A model generated the notes under the pieces. It saw nothing but the letters and a program-made list of their open reading frames with translations. It made no database searches and was not told where the DNA came from. Shown here piece after piece: positions 18,587 through 27,426 of a DNA stretch of 27,426 nucleotides. Position 1 is the stretch's first letter; every line of letters starts with the position of its first letter. The stretch is from an uncultured Nitrososphaera sp. (GTDB taxonomy: Archaea; Thermoproteota; Nitrososphaeria; Nitrososphaerales; Nitrososphaeraceae): assembly GCA_946480575.1 (NCBI GenBank), contig CAMLKF010000023.1, positions 1 to 27,426 of the forward strand. The letters run 5' to 3'. A program made the translations under genes and the position numbers.

Positions 18587-19522
18587 TTATCCTTTTCGGA
18601 TGCCGCTGAAAGGTGCGCCAAGGGCGATCTTTCTAACGGTTCTTACAACTTCATATATTGCTGCTCTCAGATCACTTGCAGTGCTTCCAAGCATTCTAAC
18701 CATGACTCCACAGTTGTTGGGCAAGATTGTTGCTCCCGAGTATACGTTAGATATAGCCTGAAGGTTGGAGCTTATCTCGTTGTTAATTTCCTGCGCCTTG
18801 CCGCTGTTTGTAAGCACGTACATGCTTCCAACTACTTCGTAACCCTCCAGCACCCCGAACAGCTTCATGTTTCGCTTCTTTGGCTCTAGCATCGCCACGT
18901 CTATGAGCCTCAGGTCATCTTTCTGGTTTTTCGCTACAGCCTTCATGTAGCATATGTCATAATCAAAGTGCTCTCCGCTGGCTACCCGGCCGGGCGTTAT
19001 CATCTCAGAGTAGAGCAGAGTTGCATTGTCGTGGACGCGCAGGCTGGCTTCTTGGTAGAACCGGGAGTCACGGTAGGGAATAACCTGATCCGGTATGTAT
19101 TCAAAGTAGCAGCCTTCGCCGACATCTATGTTCACTATCTGGGTGGCATAGTTTTTTTCCATCCTGTATATCCTAGTCGCACCCTGCGTTGTTATGTGAG
19201 CAAATGCATGATTTTTCAATGTGATGTCTATTCTATATCTATCGCCCTGCAGTATTCCGCCTGAAGGCGAGATGATGTACATATATGCCATGGAAGGCAG
19301 CGCCTCTTCAAGGTACAGGGCTCGCTGGGCGTAAAGTGGAACGCGCGAATATTGCTCCTTCACAGAGGTCTTGCCGCTATCTTTATCCTTCTCAAACTTC
19401 AGGACAAGCGCGCCCAGCTTGCCTGCTTTTCCTACCCCCAGCTGGTCCAGATCCGAGCCGTATGCCAGCACCTCTGGAGGAATGTCTCTTGGGATGTAGT
19501 ACTCCAGCTTGTCATTTTTCAT
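18587..19522 (-). CDS. ureD: Urease accessory protein UreD (UreH)
   Basis: 311 aa from ATG 19522. UreD is the scaffold that docks onto the UreABC apoenzyme and recruits UreF and UreG for nickel delivery. Family landmarks are SPSGGILQGDRYRIDI near residue 85, ITTQGATRIYRM, the YFEYIPDQVIPYRDSRFYQ segment and LLYSEMITPGRVASGE. The frame is open to 19579, which would overlap ureG; the ATG at 19522 lies 7 nt after the ureG stop and gives a normal N-terminus. It is the last gene of the urease block in transcription order. Confidence 0.93.
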   Translation of the reverse strand: MKNDKLEYYIPRDIPPEVLAYGSDLDQLGVGKAGKLGALVLKFEKDKDSGKTSVKEQYSRVPLYAQRALYLEEALPSMAYMYIISPSGGILQGDRYRIDITLKNHAFAHITTQGATRIYRMEKNYATQIVNIDVGEGCYFEYIPDQVIPYRDSRFYQEASLRVHDNATLLYSEMITPGRVASGEHFDYDICYMKAVAKNQKDDLRLIDVAMLEPKKRNMKLFGVLEGYEVVGSMYVLTNSGKAQEINNEISSNLQAISNVYSGATILPNNCGVMVRMLGSTASDLRAAIYEVVRTVRKIALGAPFSGIRKG

Positions 19523-19529
19523 ACCATTT

Positions 19530-20198
19530 TCAGCGCTTAGCAATAGTGGTTGTTTTTGGTGGCGATTCAAACAAGACATCCCTTATGATGTGTTCCGTCA
19601 CCTTTGCAATGCCTTGGCCGGTCTTGCAGTTGACAAAAACGTACGGCTTGCCGCCTCTGACTGCTTTGGCGTCTCTTTCCATGATGGCAAGGTCTGCGCC
19701 GACGTAAGGGGCAATGTCGATCTTGTTTATTGCCAAAAGGTCGCACGTCTCTATGCCAAGGCCTCTCTTTCTTGGATACTTGTCGCCGCCTGACACGTCT
19801 ATTATGTATACGAAGTAGTCTGCCAATGCAGGGCTAAAGGTGGTGGTAATGTTGTCGCCTCCGCTTTCAATTATAATCAGGTCAAGGTAGTCGTGCTTTG
19901 ACTCCATCTCCTCAATGACAGAGATATTCATGGACGGATCCTCGCGCACAGCCGTGTGTGGACAACCACCTGTTGCAAGACCAATAACGAGATCCTCTGG
20001 GATCAGTCCCTGCTCCTTTGCCAAGTTGCGTCTCATCCTCTCAGCGTCTTCCTTTGAAACGACATCGTTTGAAATGATGCCCGCCTTGTAACCTTTAGCA
20101 GCCAAAAGGGGAACGATCATTTCAATGAGCATCGTCTTGCCCGATCCTACTGGTCCTCCAACCCCTAATCTTGGAATTCGTTTTGTACTCATATGCAT
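19530..20198 (-). CDS. ureG: Urease accessory GTPase UreG
   Basis: 222 aa. This SIMIBI-class GTPase powers nickel insertion into urease. The P-loop GPVGSGKT is at 15-22. The metal-binding CPH motif is at 79-81 (TGGCPHTAVRED), flanked by the ESGGDN switch-like motif, and the NKID base-recognition motif is present. The His-rich N-terminal extension found in some bacteria is absent. ATG at 20198 and ATG at 20192 are both possible. A TATA-like stretch (CTATGTATATGC, 20216-20227) precedes it at leaderless distance in the 45-nt gap after ureF, so ureGD may have an internal promoter. Confidence 0.96.
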   Translation of the reverse strand: MHMSTKRIPRLGVGGPVGSGKTMLIEMIVPLLAAKGYKAGIISNDVVSKEDAERMRRNLAKEQGLIPEDLVIGLATGGCPHTAVREDPSMNISVIEEMESKHDYLDLIIIESGGDNITTTFSPALADYFVYIIDVSGGDKYPRKRGLGIETCDLLAINKIDIAPYVGADLAIMERDAKAVRGGKPYVFVNCKTGQGIAKVTEHIIRDVLFESPPKTTTIAKR

Positions 20199-20243: not shown

Positions 20244-20972
20244 TTATGTAATAAACATTTTAGAGCTCATTTTCTCATGAGATATCTCTATCAAGTCGAT
20301 CTGTGGAGCAAACTGCCAGATACCTTCAAGCGGCCTGTCGATATTTGTGTTGACTACTTTGATCATAGTGGGCTTGAGCTCGTCAATTACTTTTTGGCCA
20401 TCAAAATGCTGGAGCATCCCAAGTCTTAGCGCGGCGCCAACTATGCTTATCGAAAATGAGTAGAGCATCATGAGGCCCGCCCTTCTCTTTGGAATTGAAA
20501 ATACGTTAGCGGCTACTGCCAGCGCCACAGGGTACGGGCCAAAAGCCCGACCACCCTTTATCGCGTCCTCGTATTCGCCAAGAATTTTGCTATCATCATC
20601 ATTCACAAATGAACGTATGCAGCGCAACAGCTGCGTGCCGGACCTAGTCGACGCGTTTCTGATTTCTTGGATAAGCTTCATTGAAAATATTGTCCTGTCC
20701 ACTTCAAGTAACTTTTGCAGGTCAGATTTTGCCGCACATTCATAGGCATTTCCAAGTGCAGTGCAATCTGCCGGTCCTATCTGATATTCAAGAAAAGCCA
20801 CTACAAGGTCGCGCAGCTCTCCAGCCTTCATTTTTTTGCCACTGTAAAATATTGCCTCCAGCCCGCTGGACATGGAATACATGCCTGTCGGGAAGAAAGA
20901 GTCAGAAAGCTGCAGCATGCTGAGATCAGCTGTTGTTGCTGTTGTTGCGTCCGTATCTTTGTCAGTGCTCAT
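20244..20972 (-). CDS. ureF: Urease accessory protein UreF
   Basis: 242 aa, all-helical. By family knowledge it acts with UreD as the gatekeeper/GTPase-activating partner of UreG. The conserved N-terminal signature SDSFFPTGMYSMSSGLEA is clear, followed by EYQIGPADCTALGNAYE, GRAFGPYPVALAVAANVF and the C-terminal NTNIDRPLEGIWQFAPQIDL. The chosen ATG 20972 overlaps the end of ureE by 11 nt, indicating translational coupling; a longer frame to 20999 would add nine residues. An Asp/Thr/Ala-rich stretch (~3-14) precedes the core. Confidence 0.93.
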   Translation of the reverse strand: MSTDKDTDATTATTADLSMLQLSDSFFPTGMYSMSSGLEAIFYSGKKMKAGELRDLVVAFLEYQIGPADCTALGNAYECAAKSDLQKLLEVDRTIFSMKLIQEIRNASTRSGTQLLRCIRSFVNDDDSKILGEYEDAIKGGRAFGPYPVALAVAANVFSIPKRRAGLMMLYSFSISIVGAALRLGMLQHFDGQKVIDELKPTMIKVVNTNIDRPLEGIWQFAPQIDLIEISHEKMSSKMFIT

Positions 20973-21483
20973 GCACATCCATCCCTTCTTCCGGCTCAAA
21001 GACCATCTTTGTACTGCTTATCTTCAGGTGATCCATCACCGGCCCGAACATCTTTTTGAACATTTCAATTTCAGAGTCCGCCTGTATTGGAAAGTAGATC
21101 TTTCTCCCCTCCAGCCTGATTGGCCTGTGCAGGTTGCCAATAGCGTGTCCAACCTTGACTGGCAACTCTACGACATCATCTTCATGTATATTGTCCTTGA
21201 TCTCTACCAGCGCGACATTTTCCGGCTCGAGCTCTACAGTTATCATCTTGTCACCAGTAAGCAAAAGGATGTCGCCATGCCGAAGCTTTGTGCCTGATGG
21301 CAAGGTAAGGCCGACATCGGTTCCCTTGTTTGAGGTCTTGCGCATCCTAACGCGCTGTGATTCGATCCTGTTTATCCTTATGGCTTCGCAGAGTGAGCGC
21401 GACAGCATCTCGTCATACTTTTTCTTGAAGTGCTGATCCCGATAGATATTTCCAATTACTGAATCGATAGTGATCATCATCAT
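20962..21483 (-). CDS. ureE: Urease accessory nickel chaperone UreE
   Basis: 173 aa. UreE dimers carry nickel to the UreG/UreDF complex. The N-terminal half (~1-75) is the peptide-binding-like domain, with RVRMRKTSNKGTDVGLTL. The C-terminal half has the diagnostic GHAIGNLHRP at 112-121, with metal-binding H113. The long poly-His tail of some bacterial UreE is reduced here to a terminal HEH. Three consecutive ATGs (21477-21483) make the exact start uncertain by two residues. Its start lies 2 nt after the stop of the 124-aa gene upstream, so the two are co-translated. Confidence 0.94.
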   Translation of the reverse strand: MMMITIDSVIGNIYRDQHFKKKYDEMLSRSLCEAIRINRIESQRVRMRKTSNKGTDVGLTLPSGTKLRHGDILLLTGDKMITVELEPENVALVEIKDNIHEDDVVELPVKVGHAIGNLHRPIRLEGRKIYFPIQADSEIEMFKKMFGPVMDHLKISSTKMVFEPEEGMDVHEH

Positions 21484-21484
21484 G

Positions 21485-21859
21485 TTATGCTTCTTCCTTT
21501 GCTGCTTTTCTAAGTTCTTGATTCTTCTTCACTGCTTTTATCATATTTGTCAACCTCTGGGTATAGTCGACCTGGCCGTAGTGGCTGTATGCAGACCTCT
21601 GCACAGCGGCAAAGATAAGACCGTCATTGTCCATTTTTACTTTAGCACCATTTTCAAACTTGTCCGCAATGACGCAGACTGTCACCCTGTGGTCCGGGTA
21701 ATCAAGATTAAGGTGCGATGCCGGGTCTACAAGGCCGGACATAGATTCGATCTTGCCCCCAGCTATGGTCACATGCCTTATCTTTGTCGGGTCAATCACG
21801 TTCGACTCATCGTCAACGTTTGCTTCCTCGACACAGTGCCGGATCATCAGAAAAATCAT
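21485..21859 (-). CDS. Unknown protein encoded between thermosome and ureE
   Basis: 124 aa from ATG 21859; ATG 21847 is a possible alternative. The N-terminal part is acidic (CVEEANVDDESNVIDPTKI), the middle shows beta-strand patterns (HVTIAGGKIESMSG, RVTVCVIADKF, KVKMDNDGLIFAAVQ) and the C-terminal ~35 residues form a basic helix ending KKNQELRKAAKEEA. I recognise no family and no metal-binding cluster. The gene starts 1 nt after the thermosome stop and ends 2 nt before ureE, so it must be on the same transcript as both. Position suggests a role in urease assembly or chaperonin function, which is inference only. Confidence 0.75.
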   Translation of the reverse strand: MIFLMIRHCVEEANVDDESNVIDPTKIRHVTIAGGKIESMSGLVDPASHLNLDYPDHRVTVCVIADKFENGAKVKMDNDGLIFAAVQRSAYSHYGQVDYTQRLTNMIKAVKKNQELRKAAKEEA

Positions 21860-21860
21860 C

Positions 21861-23420
21861 TCACCTTTTTGACTCTGAAAGCGCCTGCTGGCTCAGGTCC
21901 TCCGCCGCAAGGTTCCTGTCTATCCTCAGGACGGATTTGGCAATTTCGCCAGCTGCCTGCAGAGCCATAGTCTTGACCATCAGCGGGTCTATCACTCCCA
22001 TCTTCCACATGTCGACCGGATCGCCGGTATTGATGTCTATGCCGTATCCCGGCGGAGACGCCTTTGCTGCCATCACCTTTTCAAGGCCGTTAAAGCCGGC
22101 GTTGGTGAGTATCTGGCGCATGATGCTCTCAAGGGCAGCGGTCACGACTTCAAGCCCCACCTGCTCCAGCCCTTTGAGCCGGAGGCCCTTTACCTTGTCG
22201 ATTATGTGCAGTTCTGCTGCGCCGCCGCCTGGCACGATTCCTTTGTTCAGAGCAGCCTCTGCTGCGTTGACGCCATCAATTGCAGCCCTCCAACGCTCAA
22301 GCGACGTCTCTTTAGTTGTTCCGGACACTAATATCGTAACCATGTTGCGGCCCGATCCCCCTTCAAGGTAGATCATGCTGTTATCCTCATCTTCATAGAC
22401 GCGCTCAACATTGCCAAGTATGTCCGGCCTCTTGAGGTCTTCCATCACCCGCACAGGCTTTGCGCCAGTGTAGCGCGACAGGTGCTCGATCTCTTCGGTC
22501 GATATCCTTACCGCAAAGACCCTTCTTGCGACCAGCATGTCCTCCACTGCCTGATCCACTTCTGGCGAAGCGATGAGGATAGTATTGGCGCCCGTCGCCA
22601 GCATAGCATCAACTATTTCCCTCGATTTTGAGATCCTGTCGTTTTCCATCAATAGTATCTCCTGGTACTTGTTGTTCTCCTTTATCCAGGATTCTTTGAT
22701 AGGTTTAAGGTCGAGCTTTGTTATCATAACGCGGGCTTTCTTTGCTTCAAGTGGAAGTTCAGGATCGACCCTTTTTCTTTCAAGCACTATGCCGTTGACA
22801 ACCTGATCTTCCATGCTGGTCTTGCGTATGATCATTATAGCTTTGTTAAAGTCGTACTCGCCGTTGGTGTACTTTGCATTTTCCCCGACCGTTCTCAATG
22901 CAGTGATGACAAGGCTTGCGAGCCTCTCCCCATCCAGCTTAGACGCCAGTGAAGTCCTGATGATGTGTTCGAGCTCGACATCGTTTATTGAAATGCGCTT
23001 TGCCCCCTTCTCCAGGAGCTGGCAGGCATTCCTTACTCCGCTTTCAATTCCTTCCACGACCTTTGTCGGGTGAACTCCAAGCTCTTTTATCAACCGCTTC
23101 CCCTCCTTTATCATCTCGGCCGACATGACTACCGCGGTTGTCGTCCCATCCCCGACCAGCTGCTCCTGCCGCTCGGCTATCTCGACTATCATTCTTGCAA
23201 CAGGGTGAATGGCCCGGAGAGAAAGAAGTATTGTCACTCCATCATTTGACACATGCCTGTTCATGGCCTGGTCTATTAGCAGCTTGTCAAGCCCCTTGGG
23301 CCCGAGCGTTGTTCGCACAGTGTCAGCTACGGCCATCACAGCATTAGAATTTGACTCTAGCGCATTGAATTCAACATTCTCGGCCATAGGCCGCCACACG
23401 CCAAAATTAGGGTTCGACAT
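21861..23420 (-). CDS. Divergent thermosome (group II chaperonin) subunit
   Basis: 519 aa. Chaperonin ATP-binding landmarks are present: LGPKGLDK (39-46), NDG (59-61), GDGTTT (90-95) and the late VPGGGAAE. The catalytic Asp is probably kept in AAIDGV at the right distance before PGGG. It is shorter than usual thermosome subunits (about 540-570), lacks the Gly/Met-rich C-terminal tail and has unusual core substitutions (SNDGVTILLSLRAIHPVARM), so it looks like a specialised paralogue. ATG 23420 follows a TATA-like CTTTATCT (23446-23453) by about 30 nt; Met 12 is an alternative start. It sits between ureC and the accessory genes and is closely coupled to the downstream genes. Confidence 0.92.
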   Translation of the reverse strand: MSNPNFGVWRPMAENVEFNALESNSNAVMAVADTVRTTLGPKGLDKLLIDQAMNRHVSNDGVTILLSLRAIHPVARMIVEIAERQEQLVGDGTTTAVVMSAEMIKEGKRLIKELGVHPTKVVEGIESGVRNACQLLEKGAKRISINDVELEHIIRTSLASKLDGERLASLVITALRTVGENAKYTNGEYDFNKAIMIIRKTSMEDQVVNGIVLERKRVDPELPLEAKKARVMITKLDLKPIKESWIKENNKYQEILLMENDRISKSREIVDAMLATGANTILIASPEVDQAVEDMLVARRVFAVRISTEEIEHLSRYTGAKPVRVMEDLKRPDILGNVERVYEDEDNSMIYLEGGSGRNMVTILVSGTTKETSLERWRAAIDGVNAAEAALNKGIVPGGGAAELHIIDKVKGLRLKGLEQVGLEVVTAALESIMRQILTNAGFNGLEKVMAAKASPPGYGIDINTGDPVDMWKMGVIDPLMVKTMALQAAGEIAKSVLRIDRNLAAEDLSQQALSESKR

Positions 23421-23445
23421 ATAGATAGTGGTTCAGAAAAGATGA

Positions 23446-23453
23446 AGATAAAG
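23446..23453 (-). promoter_or_regulatory. TATA box of the thermosome - ureEFGD segment
   Basis: CTTTATCT on the minus strand, about 30 nt before ATG 23420, in the 98-nt gap after ureC. It suggests that the accessory genes can be transcribed from the chaperonin promoter. Confidence 0.45.
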
Positions 23454-23518
23454 ATATTTCAATGGCCCGAGCGAAAAAGAAAGGGTTTAGGCAAAAGCAG
23501 GGCTCGTCCAAGCCTATG

Positions 23519-25246
23519 CTATGCCATAAAGTACCTTTGCGCCAACGATAGCTCGTTTGCTGGATCTACTGTGGCAATCTTGCCGTCCAGCTTTACCTCA
23601 TAGGTCTCAGGATCGATATCGATCTTGGGGGTGGCGTCGTTCCACATCATGTCCTCCTTGCTGATGTTCCTGCAGTTCTTAACCGGCAGCACAATCTTTT
23701 CAAGCCCGAGCTTCTCCGGGACTCCGAGCTCGATTGCGCGCTTAGACGTGAAGGTATACGATGTCCTCTTGACAGCTTTGCCCATGGCTCCAAACATCGG
23801 CCGGTAGTACACCGGCTCCGGCGTTGGAAGCGACGCGTTAGGGTCTCCCATTATTGACCAGGCAATGAACCCTCCCTTCATTACCATCTTTGGCTTTGCA
23901 GGGAAGAAGGATATTGGATACATCGCAATGTCGGCGTACTTGCCCACTTCAAGCGACCCAAGGTAGTCTGATACTCCGTGCGTGATTGCGCAGTTGATAG
24001 TCGTCTTTGCAATGTACCTCTTTGCCCTAAAGTTGTCATTGTCGCCTGTATCCTGCGGAAGCTTGCCCCTCATCTTCTTCATCTTGTCTGCCGTCTGCCA
24101 TGCCCTTATTACCACTTCGCCGATCCTGCCCATTGCTTGGCTGTCTGAAGAATACATGCTTAACACGCCTTCGTCATGCAGCACGTCCTCCGCTGCTATC
24201 GTCTCTGCCCTGATCCTTGACTCTGCAAACGCAACGTCTTCTGCGACTGCCGGGTTCAGGTGGTGACAGAACATGAGCATGTCGAGGTGCTCGTCAACCG
24301 TGTTCTTGGTGTATGGCCTAGTAGGGTTTGTTGAAGAGGGAAGTGCGAACTTTTCGCCTGCTATCTTCATGATGTCTGGCGCATGCCCTCCCCCTGCACC
24401 TTCTGTGTGGTACGTGTGCACAACCCTGCCGTCGATCGCATTTATTGTGTCTTCGACGTACGCGCATTCATTGATCGAGTCTGTATGGATGGCCACCTGT
24501 GTATCAGTAAGATCCGCTGCCTTTAAAGATGCATCGAGCACTGCGGCGGTTGTTCCCCAGTCTTCATGATCCTTGAGACCGCACGCTCCCGCCTCTATCT
24601 GCTCCAAGCTTGGTGCAAGCGATGGATGCGAGTCGTTGCCCTTACCCAAAAAGCCCCAGTTCATTGGGGTGTCTTCTACGGACTCCAGCATTCTGCTTAT
24701 GTTGAATACGCCAGGGGTACAGGTTGTTGCATTGGTGCCGTCTGCCGGCCCTGTTCCACCACCTATCATGTTGCATATGCCGCCGCTGATGCCGTCAAGG
24801 TACTGTTGCGGGGAGATCATGTGTATGTGCGTATCAAAGTGGCCTGGCGTGCATATCGTGTGCTCTCCAGCTGTGGCCTCGGTGCATGCAGAAACTATCA
24901 TGTGCGGGTTTACCTTGTCCATCGTGTATGGGTTGCCTGCCTTGCCAATGCCAGCTATCTTGCCATCTTTGATGCCAATGTCAGCTTTTACTATGCCAAG
25001 CACCGGATCGAGTATCACCGCATTTGTGATCAAAAAGTCCAAGGCTCCGTTCTTGTTGGTAACGCCCGGCGTTTGAGCTAGGCCGTCCCTTAGCGTCTTA
25101 CCGCCACCAAACACACATTCGTCTCCCGGCGTAATTAGGTCTTTTTCTATCTGGATGAACAGATCGGTATCTCCACACCTCACTTTGTCCCCTGTCGTTG
25201 GACCAAAGAGGTCGCTGTATTGCTTGCGGGTTAACTTGAGAACCAT
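23519..25246 (-). CDS. ureC: Urease alpha subunit UreC (catalytic)
   Basis: 575 aa from ATG 25246. It is the nickel hydrolase converting urea to ammonia and carbamate. All active-site elements are visible: nickel ligands H140 and H142 ([11 protein letters not shown]), the carbamylated lysine K225 ([12 protein letters not shown]), H254 (AIHTDSINE), H280 ([13 protein letters not shown]), the flap CHHL at 327-330 and D368 (SSDSQAMGR). The length matches the normal ~570. The frame is open to 25282, which would overlap ureB; the ATG at 25246 gives the usual [20 protein letters not shown] start and leaves a 16-nt gap to ureB. The subunits are separate (A, B, C), not fused as in Helicobacter. Confidence 0.98.
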
Positions 25247-25262
25247 TTTCTTTCTCTTCCTC

Positions 25263-25631
25263 CTATGCTCCACTAAAGCCAAGCTTCTTGGCTTTTTCGA
25301 CAGCTGCGCGCATTATCACACTTGAATCCATGCTGCCCATAGTCAGGCCATTGAATCCATAGCTGATCCTTTTTCCGCCTAATTCGCATAGCTCCACTTC
25401 TTTGGTGTCTCCTGGCTCAAACCTTACTGAAGTTCCTGCAGGGATGTTCAGCCTGTATCCAAACGTCTTTTCTCTCGGGAAATCAAGCACCCTGTTGACT
25501 TCAAAAAAGTGCGTGTGCGAACCTATTTGGCAGGGTCTATCACCTCTGTTTTTCACTGTTATCTTGATCGTCTTTCTATCCGGATTGCACATCACCGGGT
25601 CTGATGCTAGAACATATTCTCCGGGGATCAT
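25263..25631 (-). CDS. ureB: Urease beta subunit UreB
   Basis: 122 aa. The structural subunit signature IPGEYVLA, the [10 protein letters not shown] segment and [20 protein letters not shown] are all clear. It assembles with UreA and UreC into the holoenzyme. ATG 25631 overlaps the TGA of a 22-codon frame lying between ureA and ureB. A Shine-Dalgarno-like GGAGGT (25645-25650) stands 13 nt upstream, unusual in a window where most genes appear leaderless, and fitting an internal operon gene. Confidence 0.97.
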
Positions 25632-25707: not shown

Positions 25708-26010
25708 CTATTGGACGGGATCATGCACGGTGACTAGTTTGGTTCCGTCAGGAAAAGTGGCTTCTACCTGAACTGTATGGATAAGCTCGGGAACACCGGG
25801 CATAACGTCATTCTTACTTAATACCGACCTTGCAGACTGCATAAGATCGGCAACGCCTTTGCCTTCTCGTGCTCCTTCAACCACGTAACTGGCTATGTAT
25901 GCCACAGTTTCCGGGTAGTTCAGTTTTACGCCCCGTTTTTTCCGGCCTTCAGCTATCTGAGCTGCTGTCCAGATCCACATTTTTTCCATTTCTCTTGGTG
26001 CAAGCATCAT
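25708..26010 (-). CDS. ureA: Urease gamma subunit UreA
   Basis: 100 aa, the expected length. Landmarks are [37 protein letters not shown] and the conserved end [27 protein letters not shown]. It is the first structural urease gene in the order A-B-C. ATG 26010 and ATG 26007 are both possible. A TATA-like ATTTAAAATA (26051-26060) lies about 46 nt upstream, predicting a leader of about 20 nt, and GAGGT is present in that leader. An 18-bp palindrome lies further upstream (26126-26143). Confidence 0.97.
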
Positions 26011-26157: not shown

Positions 26158-26763
26158 TTACTGGCCTTCGTCATAGTAAGGTCTACACTTGGTGGGAAGG
26201 ACCACACTCACCCAGGAAAAGACCTGTTCGTAGGTGCCATTCTTGTTCACTGGCAGGACAAAGTCATGTATTTTTCCCGAGCTTGCCACTCTGATTGAAA
26301 GGAAATTTGAGAGAATCGCCCTGCCAAACATGTTTGCAACCATTGTCTCCATCCCTTTTCTGAGCACCAGATCTTCAACGTCCGAATACGGGATGTGATA
26401 GCAAAAGCCTTCTTTTTTTACAAGATCGTCTGGCGTCATGGCAGCCTGCTTTCTTATTTTCGAAGTGTCAAGGTCCTTTAGCAAAACAAGGTAAGGATAC
26501 GGTGCAAGGCCGGCGACGTACCCAAGATCAGCAAATTTCGTTAGCAGACCTTTTTTGCTGACTATGACCCGGCTTGTCGTGAAATCCAAAAAATAGTTTC
26601 TTGACCAGCCACCTTTTTCCTCAGAGCTTAACCGCAATATGATTTCTTCAGTGTTGTTTTTGTTGCACCAGTCGATAAACATCCTGACCTTTTCAGAGTC
26701 AGATCTATCGCGTAGCCTTTTCTTTGACTCACGGAGGAATTTTTCAAACAAAGGGGGATTCAT
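26158..26763 (-). CDS. Unknown protein between urea transporter and ureA (201 aa)
   Basis: From ATG 26763; a GTG at 26772 would add three residues. A basic, charged N-terminal helix (FEKFLRESKKRLRDRSDSEK) is followed by alternating strands (EEIILRLSSEEKG, NYFLDFTTSRVIVSKKG), a hydrophobic middle (LGYVAGLAPYPYLVLLKDLD) and a C-terminal half with IPYSDVEDLVLRKG and KIHDFVLPVNKNG. There are no clear membrane segments or catalytic motifs. The pattern of a strand-rich protein containing IPYSDVEDLVL is reminiscent of PH-like domains, but this is only an impression. It is co-directional with the urea transporter (83 nt gap) and ureA; a TATA-like AAAAATAGAAA lies near 26790-26800. Confidence 0.65.
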   Translation of the reverse strand: MNPPLFEKFLRESKKRLRDRSDSEKVRMFIDWCNKNNTEEIILRLSSEEKGGWSRNYFLDFTTSRVIVSKKGLLTKFADLGYVAGLAPYPYLVLLKDLDTSKIRKQAAMTPDDLVKKEGFCYHIPYSDVEDLVLRKGMETMVANMFGRAILSNFLSIRVASSGKIHDFVLPVNKNGTYEQVFSWVSVVLPTKCRPYYDEGQ

Positions 26764-26846
26764 CGCATGCACCGCGCCTCTCTCGCTCTTTTTCTATTTT
26801 TGCAAATAATGGGGTGGCCGGACGCCGCCAGCAACTACTACTGTTG

Positions 26847-27426
26847 TTAAGGCCTTGACCACCCTATCCCGGCAGGGATGTTCAGGAATCCGGAGGTTGC
26901 TAGTAGAAAGATCCAAGCAGTGAACACGAACGGACCAGTGAGGGCAGGCAGTCCCCATTGCCCAAAGAATCGCTGGAGGGCGGGCATCAGGAACGAGCAG
27001 CCAATGGTGGCAAACACTGCCATCATGAACGACTGCGGCGTAAGAGGCACAAAGCTTGTCAGCGCTATCATCACCAGCACTTGGTTAAAGCCATGCAGTC
27101 CAATCCTTATTTCAGCAGTGGGCAGCTTTGTAAGTATGCCCATTGCAGCTCCAATTCCTGACCCCAACAGTGCCATCAAGCCAGCCAAGTAGAGAGGCGA
27201 GAACTCGTCCCATTGCGCCGTGTAGCCGTTAGTCCACCAAGCCCTGTCCTGCACCCCCGATATGAAGGGAGCAAGCTCGAACGCAAGCGTAAGGCCTACC
27301 ACCCAGAATATGCCTGTCTTCCAGTTCTGCACGAAAGTGACTTGGGAGACACCATTGAGAGTTGCTATCATGAACTCCTTTGCAGTCCACTTAAACTGCA
27401 CTAGTTCTTCTTGTATTGGGTTTCCA
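26847..27426 (-). CDS. Urea transporter, UT family (5' end outside the window)
   Basis: The frame is open to the right edge; 192 residues of the C-terminal part are present and the stop is TAA 26847-26849. About five hydrophobic segments are visible. UT-family landmarks are FMIATLNGVSQVTFVQNWKTG, the LHGFNQVLVMIAL segment of the second repeat, and the LTGPFVFTAWIFLLA pore-helix motif near the end. UT proteins are channel-like urea facilitators and normally have two such repeats; the first lies beyond the window. Its position upstream of ureABC in the same direction supports urea uptake as the first step of the pathway. GTG at 27401 is internal, not the start. Confidence 0.9.
   Translation of the reverse strand, partial: GNPIQEELVQFKWTAKEFMIATLNGVSQVTFVQNWKTGIFWVVGLTLAFELAPFISGVQDRAWWTNGYTAQWDEFSPLYLAGLMALLGSGIGAAMGILTKLPTAEIRIGLHGFNQVLVMIALTSFVPLTPQSFMMAVFATIGCSFLMPALQRFFGQWGLPALTGPFVFTAWIFLLATSGFLNIPAGIGWSRP

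What the first reader, a model, noticed from the sequence alone, without database searches (positions are those of the whole stretch)
21485..23420. Divergent chaperonin and an unknown gene embedded in the urease locus
Between ureC and ureE the sequence holds a group II chaperonin subunit and a 124-aa gene of no recognised family. Spacing is 1 nt (chaperonin to unknown) and 2 nt (unknown to ureE), so all are on one transcript with ureEF and probably ureGD. The chaperonin keeps its ATPase motifs but is short (519 aa) and lacks the usual Gly/Met-rich tail, as a specialised paralogue would. Inference: a dedicated folding module for urease or its accessory proteins, with the unknown protein as a candidate new accessory factor.
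Basis: partly seen in the sequence, partly recalled or inferred. Interest (0 to 1): 0.75.

Follow-up and report, generated by a model that had tools for sequence, protein, structure and literature searches.

The report
Urease-bound chaperonin and new partner gene
In soil and hot-spring ammonia-oxidising archaea, one kind of urease is encoded together with its own unusual protein-folding cage and a small protein of unknown fold, and the pair is missing where the urease is of another kind, so both probably help to build that urease.

Summary
Real and conserved. Minus-strand order: UT, a 204-aa gene, ureABC, chaperonin, 124-aa gene, ureEFGD. In 250 sampled genomes of the class the chaperonin family occurs in 27, each time beside ureC; the 124-aa family in 26, each time beside that chaperonin. 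One draft genome outside that sample breaks the adjacency. Both follow one urease type: the chaperonin is in all 26 genomes with that UreC plus one with a ureC fragment; neither gene was found in 70 with only another type or 153 without a UreC match. Two genomes pair related accessory genes with the other UreABC: both lack the chaperonin, one keeps a broken stub of the small gene. One genome has ureC, small gene, ureE and no chaperonin between: the small gene belongs to urease, not to the chaperonin. The chaperonin-urease link is published (PMC5797428). New here: the 124-aa family (seven nearly invariant His/Cys; confident model, no structural match found), the dependence on urease type, a promoter-like site before the chaperonin. 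The chaperonin is not clearly Group II. Best guess: assembly factors dedicated to this UreABC.

The parts
21861..23420 (-). Urease-linked chaperonin subunit, 519 aa, own clade outside the thermosomes sampled; intact ATPase motifs, lid segment, short tail without Gly/Met
21485..21859 (-). 124-aa protein (start perhaps at 21844) of a family with no Pfam, NCBIfam, PDB or fold match found; H8, C9, H29, H49, H57, C62, H93 are 98.7-100% conserved in 233 aligned sequences (C9 is Val in the distant G453 member)
23421..23518 (-). 98-nt gap between ureC and the chaperonin; TATA-like TTTATC at 23452-23447, 32 nt before the chaperonin start; terminator-like hairpin at 23514-23501
23519..25282 (-). ureC, type A (listed ORF starts at TTG; an in-frame ATG lies 12 codons in)
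25263..25631 (-). ureB
25708..26010 (-). ureA
20962..21483 (-). ureE
20244..20999 (-). ureF
19530..20198 (-). ureG
18587..19579 (-). ureD
26847..27401 (-). C-terminal part of a UT-family urea transporter, matching profile positions 193-291 of 292

Best explanation
The chaperonin and the 124-aa protein are two assembly factors dedicated to the type A UreABC of these archaea. Shown by comparison: both sit in the urease operon in every locus of the class sample where they are found, and neither was found where type A UreABC is absent. Inferred: the chaperonin forms a lidded ATP-driven ring that folds or holds newly made UreC (or UreBC) until it is ready for nickel insertion by UreE-F-G-D. Inferred: the small protein binds UreC of its own lineage at the step between folding and nickel loading, through a conserved His/Cys set that probably binds a metal. 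It is probably an older part of the urease operon than the chaperonin and is not the chaperonin's cap.
For: Chaperonin in 27 of 250 genomes, 27 of 27 beside ureC; small gene in 26 of 250, 26 of 26 beside the chaperonin; the one missing small gene is in a genome whose contig ends inside the chaperonin gene. All 26 genomes with type A UreC (82-94% identity to the window) have the chaperonin, plus one with only the last 27 ureC codons on its contig; none of 70 genomes with only type B UreC (72% or less) and none of 153 without a UreC match at E 1e-100 has either gene at the thresholds used. UreC types A and B are each one clade (100 and 98). G066 and G230 carry accessory genes near or within the type A lineage with type B UreABC and no chaperonin of this family; G066 keeps only a broken 3' part of the small gene. 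G453 has ureC, small gene, ureE with 5 nt between ureC and the small gene. Seven His/Cys are 98.7-100% conserved over 233 sequences; six of them are kept in G453. ATP motifs kept in 16 of 16 aligned.
Against: No experiment. The type A lineage is one clade, so the counts are not independent events; the exchanges are two genomes. G230's exact place in the accessory tree is weakly supported (25), though it lies within a group supported at 98. G453 may have exchanged its urease operon, and its draft genome may miss genes. Adjacency is not absolute: in G496, a fragmented draft with two partial ureABC copies, the chaperonin is split over two contigs without ureC, and the small gene and ureE stand opposite to ureABC; this may be a rearrangement or a faulty assembly. 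Type B urease does without the pair, so urease assembly as such does not need it.
Confidence: 0.55

Rival explanations
1. The 124-aa protein is an extra structural or stabilising subunit of the finished urease, not a transient factor; the chaperonin serves this enlarged enzyme.
For: In G453 it lies 5 nt after ureC, where a subunit gene would be; it is absent or broken in the two genomes with type A-like accessory genes but the other UreABC.
Against: No urease with such a subunit is known to me (recalled); in most type A loci it lies behind the promoter-like site with the accessory genes, not with ureABC.
Confidence: 0.2
2. The 124-aa protein is a co-chaperonin (cap or client adaptor) of the neighbouring chaperonin.
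For: Adjacent in 26 of 26 loci of the class sample; similar length to GroES (recalled).
Against: The chaperonin keeps a lid segment of near-normal length (48 residues against 50-51 in Group II and 46 in Group III). The small gene occurs without a chaperonin of this family in G453. No fold match.
Confidence: 0.12
3. The chaperonin is a general or stress chaperonin that is only inherited together with the urease operon.
For: A single clade inherited as one block would look the same; the 17 genomes searched for the family hold two to eight chaperonin matches each, pieces included. In G496 it stands apart from ureABC.
Against: It has its own long-branched clade (99), stays next to ureC in 27 of 27 of the class sample, and was not found where UreABC is of the other type, even with related accessory genes.
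Confidence: 0.13

Closest known systems
Hsp60 homologue of archaeal urease loci (PMC5797428, passages)
   Same: Evidently the same gene and position: reported as conserved in urease loci of Nitrosocaldus cavascurensis and Nitrososphaerales, not found in Nitrosopumilales, proposed to stabilise urease. Genome G061 (1,577,284 bp) fits the 1.58 Mbp given there.
   Different: The passages read do not mention the 124-aa gene, the dependence on UreABC type, the operon without chaperonin, or the promoter-like site. That paper groups it with the thermosome in arCOG01257.
Group III chaperonins (Ch-CPN, PMC5635000 passages; ancestor ACIII, PMC12696368 passages)
   Same: Best solved-structure match is 9RWQ, the ACIII ancestor (300.9 bits; ACII 239.2); same one-residue-shorter segment before GGG. 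PMC5635000 mentions Ch-CPN-like genes in deep Thaumarchaeota, perhaps these.
   Different: Joint clade weak (87/44). The natural member Ch-CPN scores less (195.7 bits) than many thermosomes. Loop at the nucleotide-sensing position is 22 residues (Group III 19, Group II mostly 25) and keeps the SK motif. Not in a DnaK operon.
Group II thermosome
   Same: Built-in lid, ATP motifs, archaeal host.
   Different: Outside the Group II clade in the tree (99/97), though the AU test does not reject joining it (p 0.459); under all three curated thermosome cut-offs.
Helicobacter Hsp60 and urease (PMC6370633, abstract start in a search listing)
   Same: A chaperonin thought to help urease stability and assembly.
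   Different: That is the bacterium's own Hsp60 (Group I, recalled); here a separate paralogue is encoded inside the urease operon.

Membership tests
Group II chaperonin (thermosome) | Lies inside the Group II clade | tested here: inconclusive
   Group II excludes it with 99/97; AU test does not reject joining, p 0.459; long branch
Group II chaperonin (thermosome) | Passes the curated thermosome cut-offs | tested here: not met
   298.2 of 671.1, 294.3 of 450, 290.6 of 400 bits
Group II chaperonin (thermosome) | Built-in lid | tested here: met
   Lid segment of 48 residues against 50-51 in Group II rows; by alignment only, no structure
Group II chaperonin (thermosome) | Long nucleotide-sensing loop with Lys | tested here: inconclusive
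   22 residues against mostly 25 (range 24-32), SK kept in 16 of 16 aligned
Group III chaperonin | Clade with Ch-CPN and ACIII | tested here: inconclusive
   87/44, only two Group III rows, long branches meet
Group III chaperonin | Nucleotide-sensing loop absent | tested here: not met
   22 residues against 19
Group III chaperonin | Encoded in a DnaK operon | tested here: not met
   Beside ureC in 27 of 27 of the class sample
Group I chaperonin (GroEL) | Passes GroEL models | tested here: not met
   Best 156.4 of 352 bits
Urease maturation module (124-aa gene) | Linked to urease wherever found | tested here: met
   26 of 26 in the class sample beside the chaperonin, which is itself beside ureC; also next to ureC in G453 and next to ureE in G496
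Urease maturation module (124-aa gene) | Changes urease activity or nickel content | not testable with these tools
   Needs experiment
GroES-type co-chaperonin (124-aa gene) | GroES fold or family | tested here: not met
Known urease accessory families UreD, UreE, UreF, UreG (124-aa gene) | Pfam family match | tested here: not met
   123 members scanned at E 0.5 or less: 21 families, none a urease family, best E 0.0026

The most novel reading that the evidence does not exclude
The 124-aa family is a previously undescribed class of urease maturation (or structural) factor with a new fold and a metal site, older than the chaperonin; together with a deep-branching chaperonin that has taken UreC as its single client it forms a private folding line for one enzyme, lost when the enzyme is exchanged.
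Probability: 0.3. Interest if true: 0.8.

Novelty: new variant of a known kind. Interest (0 to 1): 0.6.

Why it matters
Most chaperonins serve many clients; a chaperonin tied by genome evidence to a single enzyme, with a natural control (related accessory genes, other UreABC, no intact pair), makes client specialisation directly testable. If the small protein acts on UreC, it adds a part to a pathway thought complete with UreD-E-F-G, in organisms that matter for soil nitrogen turnover. Attempts to make active type A archaeal urease in E. coli may need both genes.

Tried and rejected
Cap for a lidless ring: rejected, the chaperonin keeps a lid segment and the small gene occurs without it. Recent copy of the host's own thermosome: rejected, the urease-linked chaperonins form one clade (28 of 28 rows, 99) outside all thermosome rows of that tree, which stand together at 91. 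Pair needed for any urease, or for this accessory set: rejected by 70 type B genomes and by G066 and G230.

Second urease-chaperonin link: 19 of 68 type B ureC loci have another thermosome in the fetched stretch. I first took this as a parallel urease link. But of 20 regions around its His-tailed thermosome away from the stretches already fetched (58 genomes hold such a tail), an arginase-family gene was beside it in 11: 9 of 9 genomes without type B urease (7 with type A urease, one with a ureC fragment, one without) and 2 of 11 type B genomes; a sodium:solute-symporter-like hit was in 16 of 20. So that link may belong to another cluster and I do not use it as support.

Rfam hit for the 5' ureB sRNA (45.9 bits, cut-off 40) lies antisense to ureC and may only reflect conserved coding sequence; not used. 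Plasmid search for close chaperonin relatives: best listed 33%. PDB profile search with the 124-aa alignment: no hit at E 10. The fold searches cover PDB and viral models only, no cellular AlphaFold library.

The class sample is 250 drawn from a larger group. The TATA-like pattern and its interval were chosen after looking; shuffles were of single bases; several of the 28 gaps are near relatives.

Full report
What is in the window. On the minus strand, reading downstream: the C-terminal part of a UT urea transporter, a 204-aa gene without a Pfam match above cut-off, ureA, ureB, ureC, a chaperonin (519 aa), a 124-aa gene, ureE, ureF, ureG, ureD. The gaps before and after the 124-aa gene are one base each. 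Conservation of the small protein begins at IRHC (the starts of relatives there were picked by my script), so the ATG five codons further in (21844) may be the real start. No whole genome is held for the window. Its UreC is 94% identical to that of genome G103.

Linkage. Thirteen loci were fetched by chaperonin similarity (L001-L013, named draft genomes). Where the contig shows the stretch before the chaperonin, ureC is there in 10 of 11; where it shows the stretch after, the 124-aa gene is there in 11 of 11. In 250 genomes drawn from the class, at 80% completeness or more, the 124-aa family is found in 26 (E 0.01 or less) and the chaperonin family in 27 (E 1e-120 or less). All 27 chaperonin loci show ureC beside it. 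All 26 small-gene loci show the chaperonin beside it, and 25 show ureE on the other side; in the 26th the contig ends. The one chaperonin genome without a small-gene match, G240, has a contig that ends inside the chaperonin gene. In 299 genomes of the phylum, a profile of the small protein gives 7 matches: five type A genomes, G453, and a weak one (E 0.0089) that is the stub in G066. The chaperonin query gives 20 at E 1e-70 or less: the same five at 74-87% identity and 15 at 34-39%, which group with thermosomes.

An exception. L011 has 2.46 kb before the chaperonin without ureC; its contig ends inside the gene. Its genome, G496 (3.8 Mb, small contigs), holds type A ureC (86%), a second ureABC piece, the small gene with ureE, and the chaperonin in two pieces on two contigs; small gene and ureE stand opposite to ureABC. 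The small gene's match starts at residue 21. This is either a real rearrangement or a faulty assembly. All three parts are still present.

Two urease types. A search with the window's UreC finds 96 of 250 genomes at E 1e-100 or less. There is a gap in identity: 26 genomes at 82-94% (type A, one of them a partial gene) and the other 70 at 72% or less (type B); two genomes, G126 and G130, hold both and are counted as type A. A tree of 99 UreC rows gives type A as one clade (26 rows, SH-aLRT 100), type B as one clade (68 rows, 98) and G453 outside both (91). All 26 type A genomes have the chaperonin. The 27th chaperonin genome, G247, has only the last 27 codons of ureC at a contig end, 96% identical. 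None of the 70 genomes with type B only, and none of the 153 without a UreC match, has the chaperonin or the small gene at the thresholds. These counts are not independent events, since type A is one clade.

Three informative genomes. (1) G453: urea transporter, ureA, ureB, ureC, small gene (43% identical to the window's), ureE, F, G, D, with 5 nt between ureC and the small gene and no chaperonin there; no chaperonin of this family at E 1e-70 or less. It has four chaperonin matches, two of them pieces; its two full-length thermosomes branch outside the ammonia-oxidisers' own. (2) G066: ureE-F-G-D without ureABC on a 93-kb contig; before ureE lies only a 3' part of the small gene with a stop inside. 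Its UreC is type B, on another contig. In a tree of joined UreE-F-G-D from 67 loci, its accessory proteins fall with nine of the ten type A rows (95). (3) G230: type B ureABC, an unrelated 481-aa frame, then ureE-F-G-D. Its accessory proteins lie within the group that holds all ten type A rows and G066 (98), but its exact place there is unsure (25). Neither G066 nor G230 has the chaperonin. The simplest reading is that the pair serves type A UreABC itself, not the accessory proteins, and that the small gene is the older companion. The opposite reading for G453, an exchange of the whole operon, is not excluded.

The chaperonin. ATP motifs are kept in 16 of 16 rows aligned (16 of the 28 urease-linked rows in hand). 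The 28 urease-linked rows form one clade (99) on a long stem, outside all thermosomes sampled (these together 91), with GroEL as root. With two Group III rows added, Group II excludes it (99/97) and it joins Group III weakly (87/44); an AU test does not reject joining it to Group II (p 0.459). Its best solved-structure match, 9RWQ, is labelled ACII in the database but is ACIII, the Group III ancestor, in the paper (PMC12696368, passages): 300.9 bits, against 239.2 for ACII. The natural Group III protein 5X9U scores only 195.7, below many thermosomes. Its loop at the nucleotide-sensing position is 22 residues: 25 in most Group II rows (range 24-32), 19 in Group III. Its lid segment is 48 (50-51 and 46). 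PMC5635000 (passages) mentions Ch-CPN-like genes in deep Thaumarchaeota. So 'Group II' should read 'deep-branching, between II and III'. The tail is 22 residues, conserved, without His or Gly in all 28 rows and with one Met in two of them.

Transcription. Between ureC and the chaperonin there are 67 to 156 nt in nearly all loci measured (420 in L108). In 27 of 28 gaps the pattern TTTAT[CT] lies 26-48 nt before the chaperonin start, against a mean of 4.1 and a maximum of 9 in 500 shuffles. In the window it starts 32 nt before the ATG, and a terminator-like hairpin follows ureC (such sites were not in clear excess of shuffles there: 10 found, mean 8.4). So the chaperonin, small gene and ureE-F(-G-D) probably form their own unit. 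In part of the loci the small gene and ureE are 47-154 nt apart, so a further start there is possible. PMC7785015 (passages) reports that the N. [quoted passage not shown] gene-level data were not read.

What is known. PMC5797428 (passages) reports the chaperonin in urease loci of Nitrosocaldus and Nitrososphaerales, not in Nitrosopumilales, and proposes urease stabilisation. I found no mention of the 124-aa gene in the passages read or in the listings of the searches on urease with chaperonin, thermosome or Hsp60 in these archaea; the library lacks most subscription journals, and figures and supplements were not read.

Mechanism. Committed reading: type A UreC is folded or held by its own chaperonin ring, and the small His/Cys protein acts on UreC of this lineage between folding and nickel loading. 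Shown by comparison: linkage, dependence on UreABC type, independence of the small gene from the chaperonin. Inferred: the client, the order of steps, metal binding.

Noticed in passing
L177:3255-4988, L184:6264-7979, L186:2507-4252 and others (related genomes, not the window): A different thermosome paralogue with a conserved His-rich tail (8-10 His in the last 50-53 residues in 17 of 18 rows; the 18th has its tail cut off by the contig end) forms one clade (100). The tail is found in 58 of 250 genomes at E 1e-6, 57 of them with urease or a urease fragment. In several loci it lies near an arginase-family gene, a sodium:solute symporter, and in some a NicO nickel transporter or NikR-like gene. 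It looks like a metal-binding chaperonin for a nickel-enzyme cluster.
   Followed up: partly
L177:1719-2153, L184:945-1340, L185:9189-9521, L186:4356-4751: A small urease-gamma-like protein beside the arginase-family gene, apart from the real ureA; L177's copy matches Urease_gamma at 39.4 bits.
   Followed up: no
window 26158-26772 (-): 204-aa gene between UT and ureA with no Pfam match above cut-off; found upstream of ureA in 8 of the 9 loci among L001-L013 that hold ureA (the ninth contig begins at ureA), not seen in the G061 locus L182.
   Followed up: no
window 24793-25095 (+): Rfam match to the 5' ureB small RNA (45.9 bits, cut-off 40) antisense to ureC; may be a real antisense RNA or only conserved coding sequence.
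   Followed up: no
L006, L004: Records titled Nitrospirae bacterium (L006) and Nitrosopumilales (L004) carry this urease cluster at 77-88% identity in ureA, ureC and the chaperonin; probably mis-assigned metagenome bins.
   Followed up: no
L286 (G453:C10): Chaperonin-like frame, far diverged (26.5% to a thermosome), with the GDGTT motif altered; cut off by the contig end.
   Followed up: no
L325, L326, L327, L328 (G496): A type A urease locus in pieces: ureABC opposite to small gene and ureE, a second ureABC piece, chaperonin split over two contigs; rearrangement or mixed assembly.
   Followed up: partly
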